From Pseudomonadota bacterium (GTDB lineage Bacteria; Pseudomonadota; Gammaproteobacteria; Burkholderiales; Rhodocyclaceae): a stretch of DNA of 64,000 nucleotides. The number at the start of each line of letters is the position of its first letter. Position 1 is the first letter of the stretch. Positions 16,285 to 57,256 of this stretch are shown here, piece after piece. The stretch covers positions 31,854-95,853 of the forward strand of contig JAFEDI010000082.1 of assembly GCA_018241725.1 (NCBI GenBank), read 5' to 3'. The notes under the pieces were generated by a model. The model was not told the origin of the DNA. It was given only the letters and a program-made list of their open reading frames with translations, and searched no databases. Both the position numbers and the translations under genes were made by a program.

Positions 16285-18794
16285 CACCAGTCCTCCCGCA
16301 CCGCCAGCACCGCGTCCCGGCGCATCGCCTGGCGCCCGGCAAGCACTGCGGCGAGCGCCGCCAGCGCCACCAGGCCAAGGCCGAAAATCAGCAGCGACAG
16401 CCACGGCACATGCAAATCCATGCTCCAGTGGAAGCTCTGCCGATTGACCACCTCGATCAACACAAGCCCGATCGCCCCACCCGCCAGCAGACCTGCCAAC
16501 ACTCCGACGCCGGCGGCCAGCGCGCCCTCCTGGGCCAGCATCCAGCCAATCTGGCGGCGCGTCAGCCCCAGGTGACGCAGCATCCCGAACTCCTTGCGGC
16601 GGGCCGCAGCCAACGCCGCGAAGCTGGCCGCCACGCCGGCCAGGCCGATAGCCACCGCCACCGCTTCGAGCAGGTAGGTCACCGCGAAAGTACGGTCGAA
16701 GATGCGCAGCGTGATCGCCCGGATCTCCCCGGGGAAAGTCACTTCCAGCACGCCGGGGCCGGCCAGCGCGCTCAGCGCATTGGCCGTGCGCAGCGCGTCC
16801 GCGCCGGGCGCGAGGTGGATCGCCGCGTCGTTGGCAAGGCGGTCGCCCGTCAGGCGGCGGTAGGCGTCCAGGTCGATCATGACCGCGCCGGTCTGGCGCG
16901 CATAGTCCCGCCACACGCCGGCCACCGTCAGGCGCACCGGCTTGCCGGCCAGTGGCAGCTCGACCTGCTGGCCGGGCCGCCAGCCGTACAAGTCCTGCAT
17001 GGCCTCGGAGATCCATACCTCCGGCCCGTCCACGGCAACCGGCTGGCCGACCAACGGCAGGCCGCCGCCGGCAGCCGACACCGGCCGCGCCAGCAGGGCC
17101 ACCGGTGCGTGCCCGGCGGCCAGGCGCAGCCCGTCGTGGCGGGTAAAGGCAACGGACCCGACACCTGCAGTCGCAACGATGCGCGCCTGCAGTGCTTCGT
17201 CCAGGTAGCCGCCGGACTGGGCACGGCCGGCGCGCAGGTAGAGGTCGGCCGGCAGCAGCTGGGTCAGCCACTGGTCCACCGAATCCCGGAAGGACGCCAC
17301 CATGATCGCCATCGCCGCCGCCAGCGCGACACTGGTCAGCACGCCAGCGGCCGCCACTACCGCGTGACCGGGTGCCGCGGCGAGCCGGGCCACCGCCAGC
17401 CGTGCGGCCACCGGTCCACCGCCCGGCAGCAGGCGGGCCAGCAACGCGGCGATGGACGGCAACAACAGCACCGCCCCAGCCAGTATGCAGGCCACCGCCA
17501 AGTAGCCGCCGAGGGGCAGCCCATCCAGCGGCGGAATCGCGCAGGCCGCCAGGCTGCCAGCCAACAAAGCCAGGCCGAACAACGGATGGCCGCGCCCGCC
17601 GTGCAGCGCAGCCTCGTCACCCGCCTTCAGGGCTTGAGCCGGCGCCACCGTGGCGGCTTCCTTGGCTGGCAGCCACGCACCGGCCACACCAGCCACAACA
17701 CCGAGCAGCGTATAGACAGCACTGGCCAGCGGCTGGAACTGCAGGCGCGGCGCCAGGCCGGCGAAGTAGCCGGCCCCCAGGTCGCCGCCGAGCAGAGCAA
17801 GCGCCCCCCAGGCGAGCCCATGGCCGGTCACCACGCCGAGCACGCCGCCAAAGAGGCCGACCGCCGCCCCCTCGCAGACGAGCCAGCCGAACAAGGCGTT
17901 CTGCGACAGGCCGATGGCGCGCAGGAACGCGAACTCGCTACGCCGGCGCACCACCGACAAGGCCTGCGCCGAAAAGACCAGGAAGCCGCCAGTGAGCAGC
18001 GCGATCGCCGCCAGCAAAGTCAGGTTCACCCGGTAGGCCCGCGACAGGTTGGCCGCCTGGTCCGCCTCGGCGGCCGGCGTCTCCACCAGCACACCGTCCG
18101 GTAATTCGGCCTGCAGGCTGCGCCGGGCGGTTTCCGCATCGACGCCGCCCTTCAGGCGCAGATCGATGCGGGTCAGGTGGCCGAGCTTGCCGAACAGGGT
18201 CTGTACGGCGGCGATGTCCATCACGCCAAGGCAGCGTCCGTCGCCCATCGCCGGCAGATCGCCGGCCACTTTCAGCGCGACCTCCGCGCTGCCGGCCTGC
18301 ACGCGCAGCAAGCCGCCCGCTTTCACGCCAAGCGCGTCGACCGCCGCGTGGGACAGGAAAACCCCGTCGCCGGCGAAGATTGCGTAGCGGTCGCCGCCGT
18401 CAGCGCGGGGCAGCAGCTGCGGCGTAACCCGCGCCAGCACGAAGGCATCGACGCCCAGCACCTGCAGGGACTCGTCGTGCCCCACCAGCCGCACCTCGAC
18501 CTCTAGCACTGGACTGGCCTCGGCTACGTCCGGATGGGCCGCCAGCCGCGCGTAGAGCTGTTCGTCGAAGCCACCGCGCGGCCCGACCACCTGCAGGTCC
18601 GCAGCCCCCGCCATGTTGCGCAGGCCCCGGTCGAACTCCGACAACGCCGCCTCATGCACAGCCTGCACGGCCATGCCCAGCGCCACGCCGAGCACGATGG
18701 CGACCAACGAGAACAGCGTCGTCAGCCGCCGCCGGGCCAGGGAGCCGAGGAATACCGGCGCCAGGCACCTCCACCCCATCACCTGTCCGTTCAC
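16284..18794 (-). CDS. FtsX-family ABC transporter permease (AttF/AttG fused type)
   Basis: This 836-residue integral membrane protein has an N-terminal helix, a large periplasmic MacB-like domain, and FtsX core helices (about 245-385). A central helix block, a second periplasmic region and a final FtsX core (about 700-815, ending AGRQAMRRDAVLAVREDW) follow. The duplicated FtsX architecture suggests a fusion of two half-permeases, matching the AttFG pair of related systems. It probably begins at GTG 18794, overlapping the ATPase stop as GTGA; an ATG five codons later is an alternative. Such permeases extract or push lipid-like substrates rather than forming a channel. Confidence 0.82.
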   Translation of the reverse strand: MNGQVMGWRCLAPVFLGSLARRRLTTLFSLVAIVLGVALGMAVQAVHEAALSEFDRGLRNMAGAADLQVVGPRGGFDEQLYARLAAHPDVAEASPVLEVEVRLVGHDESLQVLGVDAFVLARVTPQLLPRADGGDRYAIFAGDGVFLSHAAVDALGVKAGGLLRVQAGSAEVALKVAGDLPAMGDGRCLGVMDIAAVQTLFGKLGHLTRIDLRLKGGVDAETARRSLQAELPDGVLVETPAAEADQAANLSRAYRVNLTLLAAIALLTGGFLVFSAQALSVVRRRSEFAFLRAIGLSQNALFGWLVCEGAAVGLFGGVLGVVTGHGLAWGALALLGGDLGAGYFAGLAPRLQFQPLASAVYTLLGVVAGVAGAWLPAKEAATVAPAQALKAGDEAALHGGRGHPLFGLALLAGSLAACAIPPLDGLPLGGYLAVACILAGAVLLLPSIAALLARLLPGGGPVAARLAVARLAAAPGHAVVAAAGVLTSVALAAAMAIMVASFRDSVDQWLTQLLPADLYLRAGRAQSGGYLDEALQARIVATAGVGSVAFTRHDGLRLAAGHAPVALLARPVSAAGGGLPLVGQPVAVDGPEVWISEAMQDLYGWRPGQQVELPLAGKPVRLTVAGVWRDYARQTGAVMIDLDAYRRLTGDRLANDAAIHLAPGADALRTANALSALAGPGVLEVTFPGEIRAITLRIFDRTFAVTYLLEAVAVAIGLAGVAASFAALAAARRKEFGMLRHLGLTRRQIGWMLAQEGALAAGVGVLAGLLAGGAIGLVLIEVVNRQSFHWSMDLHVPWLSLLIFGLGLVALAALAAVLAGRQAMRRDAVLAVREDW

Positions 18795-53292: not shown

Positions 53293-54108
53293 GTGACACG
53301 CGTCATCGTAATCACGTCCGGCAAGGGCGGCGTCGGCAAGACCACCACCAGTGCGAGCATCTCGTCCGGGCTGGCCTTGCGTGGCTTCAAGACCGCGGTC
53401 ATCGACTTCGACGTCGGCCTCCGCAACCTCGACCTGATCATGGGCTGCGAACGCCGGGTGGTGTACGACCTGGTCAACGTCATCAATGGCGAAGCCAACC
53501 TGAGCCAGGCCCTGATCAAGGACAAGCACTGCGACAACCTGTTCATCCTGCCCGCCTCGCAAACCCGCGACAAGGACGCGCTGACCGAAGAAGGCGTCGA
53601 GAAGGTCCTGAAGGATCTCTCCCACCAGGGCTTCGACTACGTGGTCTGCGACTCCCCCGCCGGCATCGAGCGCGGCGCCGTCATGGCGCTGACCTTCGCT
53701 GACGAGGCCATCGTCGTCTCCAACCCCGAAGTCTCCTCGGTACGTGACTCCGACCGCATCCTCGGCATCCTGCAGAGCAAGAGCCGCCGCGCCATCGAAG
53801 GCCGCGAACCGGTCAAGGAACACCTCCTGATCACCCGCTATGCAGCCAAGCGCGTCGAAGAAGGCGAAATGCTGTCCTACAAGGACGTGCAGGAGCTGCT
53901 GCGCGTGCCGCTGATCGGCGTGATTCCCGAATCCGACGACGTCCTGCAGGCCTCCAACCAGGGCACGCCCGCCATCCACCTGAAGGACAGCGACGTCGCC
54001 TTCGCCTATCAGGACGTGGTGGCCCGCTTCCTCGGTGAAGACCGCCCGCTGCGCTTCGTCAGCTACGAAAAGCCCGGCATCCTGAAGCGACTCTTCGGAG
54101 GCAAGTAA
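53293..54108 (+). CDS. minD: Septum site-determining ATPase MinD
   Basis: This 271-residue membrane-associated ATPase of the deviant Walker type ([10 protein letters not shown] at 9-18) has [11 protein letters not shown] and CDSPAGIE, and a C-terminal amphipathic membrane anchor ([10 protein letters not shown]). It binds the membrane with ATP, recruits MinC and is released by MinE. It starts with GTG, preceded by AGGGG. It is followed after 1 base by minE. Confidence 0.98.
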
Positions 54109-54378: not shown

Positions 54379-54463
54379 GCCCGGATGGTGAAATTGGTAA
54401 ACACAGCGGACTTAAAATCCGCCGCCTCACGGCTTACGGGTTCGATTCCCGTTCCGGGCACCA
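54379..54463 (+). tRNA. tRNA-Leu(UAA), island attachment gene
   Basis: An 85-base class II tRNA with acceptor GCCCGGA paired with TCCGGGC, anticodon loop CTTAAAA in stem GCGGA/TCCGC (anticodon TAA), a long variable arm and encoded CCA (54461-54463). Its 3' part from 54405 onward is repeated at 55658 and, with divergence, at 56751. It is thus the insertion site of a small island. Confidence 0.97.
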
Positions 54464-54475
54464 GCCAAACCACAT

Positions 54476-54517
54476 AAAAAACAAAAGCTTGCAATAAACT
54501 GCAAGCTTTTGTTTTTT
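54476..54517. terminator. Terminator after tRNA-Leu
   Basis: AAAAAACAAAAGCTTGCA (54476-54493) and TGCAAGCTTTTGTTTTTT (54500-54517) form a perfect 18-bp stem with a 6-base loop and A/T tracts. It acts in both directions, 12 bases after the tRNA CCA end. Confidence 0.92.
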
Positions 54518-54904
54518 CAGCAGTTTGCGACTATTGCTAATACGACGGAGTGGTCGATGCAACTGATGGATTTCGACGATATTTGTCGCTGGATCAAGAC
54601 AACGGCTACACCTCAGCGTCGATAGAGATGTTGTCGGTAGCGCCGCGTCAGTAAGTAGCTTGCATACATCGCTGCCCCCCTGGCTACTGCACGGCGATCA
54701 GATCGTGGAGTCTTGACTCTGGTCTATATTTTCATGCTCACGTCTGTGCCTCAAATTGCCTTAAGCCGTACAGCCAGTACATATGTGAGTGTTTCAGCGC
54801 GCCCGACGCTGAGTCCTTGTTCTGTCGGCATGTGGAAGTAGTGTTTGCCTTCCCTTGTTAGCCAGACTAGACTAACCACGTTGTTTTTGGAGAATGTGCG
54901 ATCG
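54518..54904. other. Non-coding left part of cassette A
   Basis: About 390 bases of lower GC content with no supported gene. A 22-codon frame from ATG at 54557 reads as a plausible peptide start but stops quickly, so it may be a gene remnant. The promoter of the antitoxin should lie near the right end, where AT-rich sequence precedes the GGAGA Shine-Dalgarno at 54889. Confidence 0.5.
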
Positions 54905-55153
54905 ATGCAAGCCGTCAATATGCTACAAGCCAAGTCCTCATTGTCCCGTTTGGTGGAAGCCATCGAGCAAGGGCAGGAGCGCGAAATCATCATTGCTCGT
55001 AATGGCCGTCCTGTCGCCAAGCTGGTCCCGATGGATACGGTGCAGGTCGAGCAGCGTATCGGCGTCGCCAAGGACAAGTTCGAGGTTCCGGATAGCATTG
55101 ACGCTCATAACGAGGAAGTGGCGCGCTTGTTCATGGGCGGGGAGCAGTCTTGA
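54905..55153 (+). CDS. Phd/YefM-type antitoxin
   Basis: The 82-residue protein has the Phd fold: an N-terminal DNA-binding part (NMLQAKSSLSRLVEAIEQGQEREIIIARNGRPVAKLVPMD, matching the N.....LS.L...V..GE...I...G.PVA.LVP pattern). A disordered toxin-binding tail follows (QRIGVAKDKFEVPDSIDAHNEEVARLFMG). It neutralises the PIN toxin encoded next and represses the operon. ATG at 54905 fits the family; an in-frame extension of 20 codons upstream is unlikely. The stop overlaps the toxin TTG start. Confidence 0.9.
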   Translation: MQAVNMLQAKSSLSRLVEAIEQGQEREIIIARNGRPVAKLVPMDTVQVEQRIGVAKDKFEVPDSIDAHNEEVARLFMGGEQS

Positions 55154-55536
55154 ACCTGCTGCTGGACACCCATGTTGCCCTGTGGGCGATTGCGGATAGC
55201 CCGAAGCTACCGCAAAAGGCGCGTGAACTGATCCAGTCCCCAAAGACGACCGTCTGGATCAGCGTCGCCAGTGTGTGGGAGATTGCAATCAAGCACGCGC
55301 TGGGCCGGGGGGACATGCCGGTGTCCAGTCAGGATGCCGTGCACTACTTCAAGGAGTCAGGCTACCGCTTCCTAGTGATCGAGCCGGAGCATGCAGTGGC
55401 CGTTGAAGACCTGGCTGCGCACCACCATGACCCGTTTGACCGCATTCTGGTAGCCCAAGCACTTGTTGAACCGATGCGGCTGATAACTCATGATCCCATG
55501 GTAGCGCTCTACAGTGACACCATTATCAAGGTGTGA
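55150..55536 (+). CDS. PIN-domain (VapC-like) ribonuclease toxin
   Basis: This 128-residue PIN nuclease has acidic active-site residues in LLLDTHVALWAI (Asp6), ISVASVWEIAIK (Glu about 43) and HHHDPFDRILVAQALVE (Asp pair about 95-98). Members cleave RNA, often tRNA or rRNA, when released from their antitoxin. TTG at 55150 is the start, with GGGGAG five bases upstream and overlap of the antitoxin stop (TTGA), typical of coupled toxin-antitoxin genes. Confidence 0.9.
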   Translation: MNLLLDTHVALWAIADSPKLPQKARELIQSPKTTVWISVASVWEIAIKHALGRGDMPVSSQDAVHYFKESGYRFLVIEPEHAVAVEDLAAHHHDPFDRILVAQALVEPMRLITHDPMVALYSDTIIKV

Positions 55537-55635
55537 TGGACGGCCACAACTGACAACAAAGTGACGACGGCGAAGGCGCTCCTGGGCGAATAATGGCGTC
55601 CCGAGCCTTGGCAAGCTGTTGAAATGACGAACAAA

Positions 55636-55658
55636 GACGTACAATGACCAACCTTTTA
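55636..55658 (+). repeat. Conserved right-end sequence of cassette A
   Basis: The 23 bases directly before the second tRNA repeat match those before the third repeat (56728-56750) at 19 positions (core ACAATGACC-N-AC-N-TTTT). The same sequence is absent from the tRNA gene. It therefore belongs to the cassettes, perhaps a recombinase arm site. Confidence 0.7.
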
Positions 55659-55716
55659 GCGGACTTAAAATCCGCCGCCTCACGGCCTACGGGTTCGATT
55701 CCCGTTCCGGGCACCA
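55658..55716 (+). repeat. Direct repeat of tRNA-Leu 3' half, copy 2
   Basis: 59 bases that equal tRNA-Leu positions 54405-54463 except for one base in the variable arm (T to C). They span the anticodon stem-loop through the CCA end, the usual core of tRNA attachment sites. There is no 5' half, so it is not a functional tRNA. Confidence 0.95.
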
Positions 55717-55732
55717 CCCAACACCAAGCGAT

Positions 55733-55757
55733 GGCCCCTCACGGGGCCGTTGTTATT
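55733..55757 (+). terminator. Terminator at the left end of cassette B
   Basis: GGCCCC (55733-55738), TCAC, GGGGCC (55743-55748) followed by GTTGTTATTT. It lies 16 bases after copy 2 of the repeat, just as another terminator follows the real tRNA. Confidence 0.75.
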
Positions 55758-55805
55758 TATGATCGAGAAGATCGTAATTACTCGTCGTGATCGGAGGGTA
55801 AGGCA

Positions 55806-56096
55806 GTGACCGCCAGAGATGTGGAATCCGCGCTGCTCGCCCGGTGCTCTTCCGTTGCACGAGAAGCTGCGCAATCGGCCCAGGACCAGCGCGAAGCCAA
55901 TGTGTTCCGCTTGGCGGCGATGGTCGTCCAGTCTCGATTTCCCGTCGAATCCAGGTGCTTGCTGCAAGCCAGCGAGCAGTATTTCGCCTTGCATCCGAAC
56001 GAAAGACTGGCTCCGGCAGATGTCGTCAGAAAGGGCTGGATTTTCAGCCTGCCTCGCTTGCGGGACATGCTGACACACCGGTTCTACAGGCATTGA
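55806..56096 (+). CDS. Small helical protein paired with the DUF6036-like gene
   Basis: This 96-residue soluble, mostly helical protein is rich in Ala, Arg and Glu (LLARCSSVAREAAQSAQDQREANVFRL, then VVQSRFPVESRC and LAPADVVRKGWIFSLPRLRDML). I do not recognise the family. GTG at 55806 has a perfect GGAGGG seven bases upstream. It ends 4 bases before the nucleotidyltransferase gene, the layout of an antitoxin-toxin pair, but the order and role are unproven. Confidence 0.65.
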   Translation: MTARDVESALLARCSSVAREAAQSAQDQREANVFRLAAMVVQSRFPVESRCLLQASEQYFALHPNERLAPADVVRKGWIFSLPRLRDMLTHRFYRH

Positions 56097-56100
56097 AGCC

Positions 56101-56724
56101 ATGTCGGCCAACCAGATGTTTCATACCCACACGGCCCTGGCGGAGGGATTGCGGGAGTTGTTCAAGCAACTTGCAGAACGGCTGTCACTGTGCAGCCCCG
56201 TAAATGTGTACCTGGCGGGTGGGATGGCCGTTCATCTCTACACCGCCAATCGCGTCACGACCGATGTAGACGCGGAATTCGGGGGACGCATCTATCTTCC
56301 GAATGATCTGATGGTCGAGGTCACGCTGGAGGATGGCAGCCAGCAGGTCGTCTATCTCGACACCAATTACAACTCGACCTTTGCACTGTTGCACGAGGAC
56401 TACCTGGATGACGCCATTCCAGTAGATCTCGGCGTGGATCAGCTTCGCGTGCATGTCCTTTCGCCCGTTGATCTTGCCGTAAGCAAGATCTCCCGCTTCG
56501 CCGACAACGACAAAGAGGACATTGCAGCATTGGTTCGACTCGGCCTGACAAGCGCCGACGAAATCGAGCAACGTGCAACGAGCGCCCTGGCGGGTTACGT
56601 CGGCGGACAAGCCATGCTGCAACTGAATCTGCGGGATGCAGTCGCCATGGCTCGTCGGGTTGAAGCGGAACGGCTGTCAGCCACACAAGCACACAGCGGC
56701 GAGCATCAGCCTTATAAAGAATGA
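56101..56724 (+). CDS. DUF6036/AbiEii-like nucleotidyltransferase
   Basis: The 207-residue protein has the minimal nucleotidyltransferase signature: VYLAGGMAVHLYTANRVTTDVDAEFGG (GG followed by D.D of the first strand-turn) and a later acidic residue in PVDLGVDQLRVHVLSPVDLAVSKISRFADNDKEDIAAL, as in AbiEii and DUF6036 proteins. AbiEii-type toxins transfer nucleotides to tRNA or other targets and form phage-defence toxin-antitoxin pairs. Here it pairs with the small gene upstream inside an island cassette, so a defence or addiction role is plausible. Confidence 0.75.
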   Translation: MSANQMFHTHTALAEGLRELFKQLAERLSLCSPVNVYLAGGMAVHLYTANRVTTDVDAEFGGRIYLPNDLMVEVTLEDGSQQVVYLDTNYNSTFALLHEDYLDDAIPVDLGVDQLRVHVLSPVDLAVSKISRFADNDKEDIAALVRLGLTSADEIEQRATSALAGYVGGQAMLQLNLRDAVAMARRVEAERLSATQAHSGEHQPYKE

Positions 56725-56727
56725 ATG

Positions 56728-56750
56728 GACGCACAATGACCCACATTTTT
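56728..56750 (+). repeat. Conserved right-end sequence of cassette B
   Basis: The 23 bases immediately before copy 3 of the tRNA repeat; 19 of 23 match the corresponding bases before copy 2, including ACAATGACC and a T run. Confidence 0.7.
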
Positions 56751-56808
56751 GCGGACTCGAAATCCGCCTCTTCGCAGCCTTCGGGTTCGATTCCCGTTCC
56801 GGGCACCA
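56751..56808 (+). repeat. Diverged direct repeat of tRNA-Leu 3' half, copy 3
   Basis: 58 bases aligned without gaps to tRNA-Leu 54406-54463, with eight substitutions confined to the anticodon loop and variable arm. The last 27 bases (T arm to CCA) are identical. The anticodon triplet reads CGA instead of TAA. It marks the right edge of the island, 28 bases before the DUF1178 gene. Confidence 0.9.
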
Positions 56809-56836: not shown

Positions 56837-57256
56837 GTGATCGTCCTCGACCTCAGCTGCGAGCAGGGCCATCGCTTCGAAGCCTGGTTCGCCTCCAGCG
56901 ACGCCTTTGAAAACCAGCTCGCCCGAAATCTGGTGAGCTGTCCCCACTGCGGCACTCACCAGGTCAGGCGGCTGCCCTCCGCGCCCTACGTGCAGACCTC
57001 GTCCCACGCCCGGCCGCCTGTCGCGGAGCCGGACCCGCAGGCCATCGCGGCCAAGCTGATCGAAGCCCTGCGTACCGCCGCCCGGCAGTCCGAGGACGTC
57101 GGCGAGCGTTTCGTCGAGGAAGCCCGCCGCATTCACCATGGCGATGCCGAAGAACGGGCCATCCGCGGCCAGGCCAAGCCCAGCGAGATGATGGAACTGC
57201 TGGAAGAAGGCATCCCCATCCTGCCCGTTCCGCCGGACAAGGACGACCTTCACTGA
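56837..57256 (+). CDS. DUF1178 family protein
   Basis: The 139-residue protein begins VIVLDLSCEQGHRFEAWFASSDAF, the conserved DUF1178 start, and has a zinc-ribbon-like CPHCGTHQVRRLPSAP. The two pairs of cysteines/histidines (C..GH and CPHC) suggest metal binding. The C-terminal half is helical (AIAAKLIEALRTAAR) and ends with EMMELLEEGIPILPVP, also family-typical. Function unknown. The GTG start is only 28 bases from the island boundary, so its promoter may lie within or beyond the island. Confidence 0.88.
   Translation: MIVLDLSCEQGHRFEAWFASSDAFENQLARNLVSCPHCGTHQVRRLPSAPYVQTSSHARPPVAEPDPQAIAAKLIEALRTAARQSEDVGERFVEEARRIHHGDAEERAIRGQAKPSEMMELLEEGIPILPVPPDKDDLH

What the first reader, a model, noticed from the sequence alone, without database searches (positions are those of the whole stretch)
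54379..56808. Tandem integrase-less mini-islands anchored at tRNA-Leu(UAA)
Seen: the 3' half of tRNA-Leu appears three times (54405, 55658, 56751) as direct repeats that delimit two cassettes of about 1.25 and 1.1 kb. Each cassette follows the same plan: tRNA end, terminator within about 20 bases, two-gene cargo, a conserved 23-bp sequence, repeat. Cargo in one is a Phd/PIN pair, in the other a small gene plus nucleotidyltransferase. No recombinase is present. Known: islands in tRNA genes usually carry their own tyrosine integrase. Inference: this may be a class of mobile addiction or defence cassettes moved in trans, stacking in an array at one tRNA.
Basis: partly seen in the sequence, partly recalled or inferred. 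Interest (0 to 1): 0.85.

Follow-up and report, generated by a model that had tools for sequence, protein, structure and literature searches.

The report
Stacked toxin-antitoxin relics at tRNA gene
Next to one tRNA gene of a Zoogloea bacterium lie two tiny DNA pieces, each holding a pair of genes (one a likely toxin-antidote pair); one of them has an edge matching that of a filamentous virus inserted at the same spot in a relative, so they are probably the last remnants (or hitch-hikers) of such elements, stacked one behind the other.

Summary
The tRNA-Leu(UAA) 3' half occurs three times and bounds two units of 1253 and 1092 bp (Phd/PIN; small gene + DUF6036 nucleotidyltransferase). The genus is Zoogloea. 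Of 21 genus genomes with minE, 13 show no unit, 3 an integrase-type island (two by Pfam, one by eye) and 5 integrase-less TA or TA-like units (Phd/PIN, DUF6036, MazEF); sister species differ. In Z. oleivorans the same tRNA carries a 14.75-kb inovirus prophage with a P2/186/Pf-like integrase. Beyond the tRNA itself, its ends match the right end of unit 1, both ends of the G011 unit and the left ends of G010 and G013. An 18-bp arm-like motif matches exactly only 4 times in about 108 Mb, all at this locus. Unit 2 matches the prophage no better than chance; it shares only a right end with unit 1. No unit keeps both arms, and one joins ends of two element types. I favour decayed prophages or islands preserved around an addiction module and accreted in tandem (CIME-like) over an active trans-mobilised class, which is not excluded. 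A metagenomic inovirus shows the same tRNA-half, hairpin, Phd/PIN order at tRNA-Met. Movement and toxicity are untested.

The parts
54379..54463 (+). intact tRNA-Leu(UAA); its 3' half 54406-54463 is the proximal att repeat (attL)
   Evidence: ARAGORN; repeats; one variable-arm letter differs from the relative G016, as expected if the 3' part came in with unit 1
54464..55716 (+). unit 1 (c1, 1253 bp): from the base after CCA to the end of the second tRNA 3' half
54476..54517 (.). long-stem hairpin directly behind the tRNA (likely bidirectional terminator; inferred)
   Evidence: z -8.5
54905..55153 (+). Phd/YefM-type antitoxin
   Evidence: PF02604, E 2.9e-8; homologues in G010, G011
55150..55536 (+). 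PIN-domain (VapC-like) toxin, 128 aa, overlaps the antitoxin's end
   Evidence: PF01850, E 2.9e-11; 90% aa identity in G011
55551..55568 (+). arm-like motif TGACAACAAAGTGACGAC, 166 bp before the unit's end, the same distance as in the Z. oleivorans inovirus
55636..55658 (+). conserved right end of unit 1 (GACGTACAATGACCAACCTTTTA), abutting the displaced tRNA half
   Evidence: last 45 nt before CGGACT: 34 of 45 identical to the inovirus end, shuffle maximum 22
55659..55716 (+). second, displaced tRNA-Leu 3' half (attR of unit 1, proximal att of unit 2)
   Evidence: same letters as the tRNA 3' half of relative G016
55717..56808 (+). unit 2 (c2, 1092 bp)
   Evidence: a homologous unit alone at the same site in G020
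55727..55754 (+). hairpin behind the second tRNA half (terminator-like)
   Evidence: z -5.3
55806..56096 (+). small gene, 96 aa, no Pfam match; codon-position pattern against G020 suggests coding
56101..56724 (+). DUF6036 nucleotidyltransferase, 207 aa
   Evidence: PF19502, E 7.8e-14; the gene pair also lies on Xanthomonas plasmids
56728..56750 (+). conserved right end of unit 2 (GACGCACAATGACCCACATTTTT)
   Evidence: resembles the right end of unit 1 (24 of 45, shuffle maximum 23) but not the inovirus end (18 of 45, shuffle maximum 23)
56751..56808 (+). third, altered tRNA-Leu 3' half (distal attR)
56837..57256 (+). DUF1178 gene, the neighbour that directly follows the tRNA in 8 relatives

Best explanation
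The two units are CIME-like relics of tRNA-Leu-targeted integrative elements. Unit 1 derives at its right end from an inovirus-type prophage with a P2/186/Pf-like tyrosine integrase, of the kind still present at this tRNA in Z. oleivorans; the parent of unit 2 is not identified. Shown: these end matches, the precise resumption of the flank, and an exchange of the tRNA 3' end with a crossover upstream of the variable arm. Inferred: each element integrated into the intact tRNA, donated a new tRNA 3' end and hairpin, and pushed older arrivals downstream, so unit 1 is younger than unit 2. The integrase and phage genes were then lost, while a two-gene addiction module was retained because losing it is costly. 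What remains is att - hairpin - gene pair - att, stacked by accretion. They might still be excised or carried by a related integrase in trans or in cis, but none that I read keeps a complete pair of arms.
For: Prophage at the same tRNA with Zot, pIV-like secretin, DUF2523 and integrase. With the tRNA half left out, the last 45 nt of the right end agree with the prophage in G011 35 of 45 and c1 34 of 45 (shuffle maximum 22); left ends of G013, G010 (both) and G011 score above all 500 shuffles. Arm motif exact 4 times in 23 genomes, all at this locus (about 0.2 expected genome-wide; reversed control 1 hit at up to one mismatch). Spacing: -166 in G018 and c1, both exact; +70/71 behind CCA in G018 (exact), G010 and G013 (one mismatch each). 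tRNA letters: in G018 and G000 the displaced copy equals the relatives G019 and G016 in the variable arm while the intact tRNA carries the variant. Variable filling, with sister pairs G011/G004 and G010/G012 differing. Truncated or mixed ends: c1 lacks the left arm, G011 full arms, G013 has an inovirus-type left end and a G002-type right arm. Even G004, which lacks the Phd/PIN unit, has behind its tRNA a stretch like the second left end of G010 (above all 500 shuffles), i.e. perhaps an older scar. L222: inovirus in tandem with tRNA half, hairpin, Phd/PIN at tRNA-Met. CIMEs and accretion are established elsewhere (PMC5704250, PMC3146451; passages).
Against: Unit 2 and its G020 relative match the prophage ends no better than shuffles once the tRNA half is left out and have no arm motif; c1's left end is only marginal (10 of 500 shuffles as good). 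No phage gene remnant was found in c1 or c2: a 37-aa frame in the c1 leader has no match in plasmids and c1+c2 DNA none in phage records. No Phd/PIN was seen among the G018 prophage proteins examined, and PIN has no match in the phage collection. The G018-type integrase was found at E 1e-30 in 2 of 120 genomes (G018, and G093 as a 40% partial match), not in G000; G000 has 18 other integrase-family matches whose att sites I did not examine. G011 keeps inovirus-like stretches at both ends around only a TA operon, while its sister lacks the unit, which also fits arrival of a ready-made mini-unit.
Confidence: 0.57

Rival explanations
1. Trans-mobilised mini-satellites: the 1-kb units are a selected class with attP-like ends and an addiction module, moved by integrases of inoviruses or islands that share the tRNA-Leu site.
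For: Same plan and similar size in G000 (two), G011 and G020; G011 has inovirus-like stretches at both ends. Over the first 130 codons the unit-2 nucleotidyltransferase of G000 and G020 is 72% identical at third positions while minD is 93%, so the two were acquired or replaced separately. Sister species differ. Several gene-pair types share the site.
Against: No unit read has both arms; end points differ; G013 is mixed; no G018-type integrase in G000 (its 18 other integrase matches were not tested); 0 matches of the end pattern in viral contigs; in genome contigs 3 of 11 hits are Zoogloea and 8 Paenibacillus hits are unrelated.
Confidence: 0.23
2. One ancient Phd/PIN unit was inherited vertically from an early Zoogloea ancestor and lost precisely many times by recombination between the tRNA repeats.
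For: Phd/PIN divergence tracks flank divergence: G000/G011 85.8 vs 87.5%, G010/G011 91.3 vs 89.1%.
Against: Three separated clades carry it, each with a sister lacking it (8 of 18 inner branches weak); the units share mainly the operon and short ends; it does not explain unit 2, where flanks are 97% and the unit 84% identical.
Confidence: 0.13
3. Ordinary segmental duplication or assembly artefact of the tRNA region.
For: Repeats next to each other in a draft assembly of 151 contigs.
Against: Duplication would copy upstream tRNA sequence, not unrelated shared element ends; tRNA letters are exchanged as in site-specific recombination; similar structures appear in other genomes.
Confidence: 0.02

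Closest known systems
CIMEs (cis-mobilizable elements) and site-specific tandem accretion, as defined in PMC5704250 (passages)
   Same: att-flanked, no integration or transfer genes, stacked at one tRNA-type site by insertion of newcomers next to decayed residents
   Different: here about 1 kb with one gene pair, and unit 1 has an end homologous to an inovirus prophage rather than to an ICE/IME
Dehalococcoides ssrA genomic islands (PMC3146451, passages)
   Same: tandem islands bounded by repeats of an RNA gene 3' end with a conserved motif before the repeat; 15 islands lack the integration module
   Different: serine recombinase, ssrA target, reductive dehalogenase cargo
Pf filamentous prophages of Pseudomonas aeruginosa (PMC7549136, passages)
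   Same: filamentous phages with site-matched tyrosine integrases in tRNA genes, common parDE toxin-antitoxin morons, duplicated attP sites in some chromosomes
   Different: complete prophages, other tRNAs, other TA family; no TA-only relics in the passages I read
Integron gene cassettes (recalled)
   Same: small gene units stacked at one end of an array
   Different: recombination site is a tRNA 3' half rather than attI/attC

Membership tests
CIME | lacks integration and transfer genes | tested here: met
   the four main ORFs are none of these; remaining ORFs were not searched
CIME | bounded by attL/attR including the target gene end | tested here: met
   three tRNA-Leu 3' halves; flank resumes as in G016
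CIME | att sites still functional | not testable with these tools
   no recombination assay; no unit read retains both arm motifs
CIME | arises by decay of an ICE or IME | tested here: inconclusive
   unit 1 and G011 match an inovirus prophage, not an ICE/IME; unit 2 has no identified parent; decay itself was not observed
Inovirus prophage (as the units themselves) | pI/Zot ATPase, coat and replication genes | tested here: not met
   none among the units' four main ORFs; Zot present in G018 and L222
Type II toxin-antitoxin Phd/YefM-PIN (unit 1) | antitoxin and PIN toxin in an overlapping operon | tested here: met
   overlap 55150-55153; homologous pair annotated Phd/YefM-VapC on a Sulfuricystis plasmid
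Type II toxin-antitoxin (unit 1) | toxicity neutralised by the partner | not testable with these tools
   needs expression
Toxin-antitoxin (unit 2, DUF6036 pair) | recognised TA family | tested here: inconclusive
   Pfam names only a nucleotidyltransferase; PADLOC none; no solved relative; the pair recurs on plasmids
Integron cassette array | attC recombination sites | tested here: not met
   the shared boundary is a tRNA 3' half; attC models were not run
Integron cassette array | integron integrase | not tested
   integrase-family matches were listed, in a capped list; IntI was not singled out

The most novel reading that the evidence does not exclude
A class of about 1-kb, protein-poor satellites, made only of inovirus-like attachment ends, a hairpin and an addiction module, exploits resident filamentous phages for integration (and perhaps for export as very short single-stranded genomes) and accumulates in stacks at tRNA genes.
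Probability: 0.17. Interest if true: 0.82.

Novelty: new variant of a known kind. Interest (0 to 1): 0.48.

Why it matters
It suggests how addiction genes can outlast the element that brought them: everything but att ends and the toxin-antidote pair disappears, and the scars pile up at one tRNA. It gives a site with unit-free, mini and full-length forms in related species, on which to test whether integrase-less minimal units can be moved by a helper phage. It also warns that chromosomal TA pairs beside tRNA genes may be phage or island relics.

Tried and rejected
The 17-bp core as a finder gave no further tRNA-linked place in 100 genomes. A relaxed pattern matched 5 of 249 family genomes: G000, G020 and G018 at this site, and two unrelated 3-mismatch hits (only one of the two, L050, was looked at); viral contigs 0; genome contigs 11, of which 3 Zoogloea and 8 Paenibacillus, seven of these sharing one unrelated sequence. 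Corrected on recheck: BLAST matches of the right ends include the 58-bp tRNA half. With it left out, only G011 and c1 stay clearly matched to the prophage, unit 2 and G020 do not; I lowered confidence from 0.6 to 0.57 and interest from 0.5 to 0.48 for this. Rejected: Phd/PIN always sits at tRNAs. Of 45 PIN loci scanned, the window's own not among them, tRNA repeats were found in one (G011, L057) and a tRNA-Met beside the operon in two (L229, L230; no second repeat seen); four others have non-tRNA direct repeats of 15-171 bp, not followed; the scan missed the decayed repeat of G010 (decayed repeat). The second Phd/PIN copy of the own genome (L088) and the DUF6036 copies L213-L216 share only the gene-pair region with c1 and c2, not the ends. 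For DUF6036, 4 viral contigs stretches matched a peptide pattern, none confirmed. PDB: 0 hits for the nucleotidyltransferase profile, one engineered protein for PIN. Structure prediction was not run. A regex error made empty; corrected.
Full report
What is there. The intact tRNA-Leu(taa) at 54379-54463 is followed by two more copies of its 3' half, at 55659-55716 and 56751-56808, spaced 1253 and 1092 bp. Unit 1 holds a Phd/YefM antitoxin and a PIN toxin; unit 2 holds a 96-aa gene without a Pfam match and a DUF6036 nucleotidyltransferase. Each unit has a strong hairpin 10-12 nt behind CCA and ends with a 23-bp block; the pattern for it, extended into the tRNA, matches twice in the own genome, both times here. 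The generic terminator scan shows no excess over shuffles, so calling the hairpins terminators is inference. PADLOC finds no defence family among the four proteins.

The site in relatives. Public contigs with the same sequences name the genus as Zoogloea (L191 Zoogloea sp., matching G011; L192 Z. oleivorans, matching G018). minE was found in 21 of 23 genus genomes. Behind the tRNA-Leu next to minE (read partly by eye) I find three classes. (i) In 13 no unit is seen: DUF1178 follows directly in 8 (G003, G005, G007, G008, G009, G015, G016, G019), another neighbour follows in 5 (G004, G006, G012, G014, G022). For G014 only 1.1 kb could be read. G006 has about 2 kb more than its sister G022 between the tRNA and glucokinase, so it may hold a decayed unit. 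G004 has behind its tRNA a stretch like the second left end of G010 (above all 500 shuffles), so unit-free does not mean never visited. (ii) Integrase-type islands in 3: G018 14.75 kb and G021 7.9 kb (integrase by Pfam), and G002, where 573 bp were readable and an interrupted integrase-like start is read by eye. (iii) Units without a seen integrase in 5: G000 (two), G020 (unit-2 type; its nucleotidyltransferase is interrupted by a frameshift), G011 (Phd/PIN, 964 bp), G010 (MazEF plus Phd/PIN, distal repeat decayed), G013 (MazEF, inverted, split over two contig ends and partly unread, distal repeat decayed). On a minD-minE tree (21 rows; 7 of 18 inner branches well supported, 8 weak) G011 pairs with G004, G010 with G012 and G000 with G020, all three pairs well supported.

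Site-specific recombination. In G018 the intact tRNA has GGCCTACGG where the displaced copy and the relative G019 have GGTTTACGG. In G000 the intact tRNA has GGCTTACGG while the displaced copy equals the relative G016, GGCCTACGG. So the tRNA 3' part came in with the element and the host's own was displaced, with the crossover upstream of the variable arm; tandem duplication would not do this. Downstream DNA resumes as in the unit-free relatives (G004 against G011; G016 against the third copy of G000).

The parent-type element. The G018 island encodes a tyrosine integrase, a Zot-family ATPase, a pIV-like secretin, DUF2523 and an IS66 transposase: an inovirus prophage with an IS insertion. The integrase is 43% identical to those of phage 186 and Pf phage PfAC16. 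BLAST joins its right end to G011 (119 bp), c1 (104 bp), c2 (78 bp) and G020 (57 bp), but 57-58 bp of each are the tRNA half. Without it, the last 45 nt agree in 35 (G011), 34 (c1), 23 (G020) and 18 (c2) positions, shuffle maxima being 22, 22, 25 and 23. So only G011 and c1 are shown to share the inovirus right end; c2 and G020 are tied to it only through c1 (24 and 28 of 45; shuffle maxima 23 and 22). The left ends of G013, G010 (both) and G011 exceed all 500 shuffles against the prophage, c1 is marginal (10 of 500 as good), c2 and G020 do not.

The arms. TGACRACRAANTGACRAC matches exactly 4 times in 23 genomes of about 108 Mb (about 0.2 expected), all at this locus: both ends of the G018 prophage, c1, and the second hairpin region of G010. 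With one mismatch there are 8 more, of which G010 (first hairpin) and G013 lie here and 6 elsewhere; the reversed control gives 1. Distances agree: 166 bp before the element end in G018 and c1; 70-71 behind CCA in G018, G010 and G013; core ACAATG 76 bp before the end in c1, c2, G011 and G018, 73 in G020. That these are integrase-binding arms is inferred.

Relic or passenger. No unit read has both arms: c1 only the right, G011 neither in full, c2 and G020 none, G010 left ones only. G013 has an inovirus-type left end and, 106 bp before its decayed CCA, a GTGGTAGT/GTGGTAGTC motif that G002 has 59 bp behind its tRNA. Such truncated and mixed ends fit deletion inside tandem elements. In the other direction, over the first 130 codons the unit-2 nucleotidyltransferase in G000 and G020 is 72% identical at third positions (95 and 98% at first and second) while minD is 93%, so the two were gained or replaced separately, and G011 has a complete mini-form whose sister lacks it. 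Phd/PIN divergence is close to flank divergence and would allow old vertical inheritance with repeated loss.

A second system. Viral contig IMGVR_UViG_3300005511_000707 (L222) holds an intact tRNA-Met, a prophage with Zot, DUF2523 and a tyrosine integrase, a second tRNA-Met 3' half, a hairpin-like stretch (by eye), and then Phd/PIN of the same family; the contig ends 25 residues into PIN. An inovirus thus lies in front of a tRNA-half/Phd-PIN unit at another tRNA; whether that unit has a distal repeat is not visible.

Cargo. Both gene pairs recur as pairs on plasmids (DUF6036 pair in Xanthomonas and others, Phd/PIN in Sulfuricystis; 14 records matched in all, some over one gene only) and elsewhere in chromosomes without the att ends. 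This fits an addiction function; for unit 2 that is inference.

Literature. CIMEs and tandem accretion are established (PMC5704250; Dehalococcoides ssrA islands, PMC3146451; Pf phages with parDE morons and duplicated attP, PMC7549136; inovirus-encoded TA pairs, PMC6813254; passages only). The listings of searches show, by title and start of abstract, no paper on integrase-less TA mini-units with inovirus-like ends or on this Zoogloea site; two of the listings were cut (20 of 27, 12 of 35) and one showed 10 of 273, and most subscription papers are not in that library.

Verdict. Real and informative, best read as relics of tRNA-targeted phages and islands kept by addiction genes: a small, partly inovirus-linked variant of CIMEs. 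Active trans-mobilisation remains possible and can be tested.

Noticed in passing
L194-L198 (G016 C217, C717, C260; G020 C3; own genome C117:27166 and about 28330): A dispersed repeat of over 100 nt ends in a tRNA-Leu-like T-arm/acceptor stretch (GGGTTCGATTCCCGTTCCGGGCACC), in most copies followed by a stretch like GTGACACCTGGAATCAC; two copies lie 1.16 kb apart in the own genome, a few kb from an integrase. Nature unknown.
   Followed up: partly
L088 (own genome C93:2688-3071): A second Phd/PIN operon, 86% identical in DNA, in a context shared with G016 C152; no tRNA or direct repeat found nearby.
   Followed up: partly
L229, L230 (genus g146, same order): Phd/PIN lies directly and convergently behind tRNA-Met; in L230 the tRNA 5' half is replaced, so only a 3' half remains.
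   Followed up: partly
L037 (G021) and L045 (G002): Further integrase-type elements at the same tRNA-Leu with different flanking repeats (GGGACACC- and GTGGTAGT-type), suggesting a hotspot for several integrase types (G002 by eye).
   Followed up: partly
L044 (G006), about 2 kb behind the tRNA: Extra DNA between tRNA-Leu and glucokinase compared with G022, containing a TGACAACACCATCC stretch like that of the G011 unit; possible decayed unit.
   Followed up: no
L038:about 18355-18555 (G010): The leader of the second G010 unit looks by eye like a remnant of an ISAs1-type transposase read on the L038 + strand; the family name is recalled and was not searched (sequence).
   Followed up: no
53938-54016 (-): ARAGORN calls a tRNA-Leu(cag) inside minD, probably a false positive; a similar call appears in L057.
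   Followed up: no
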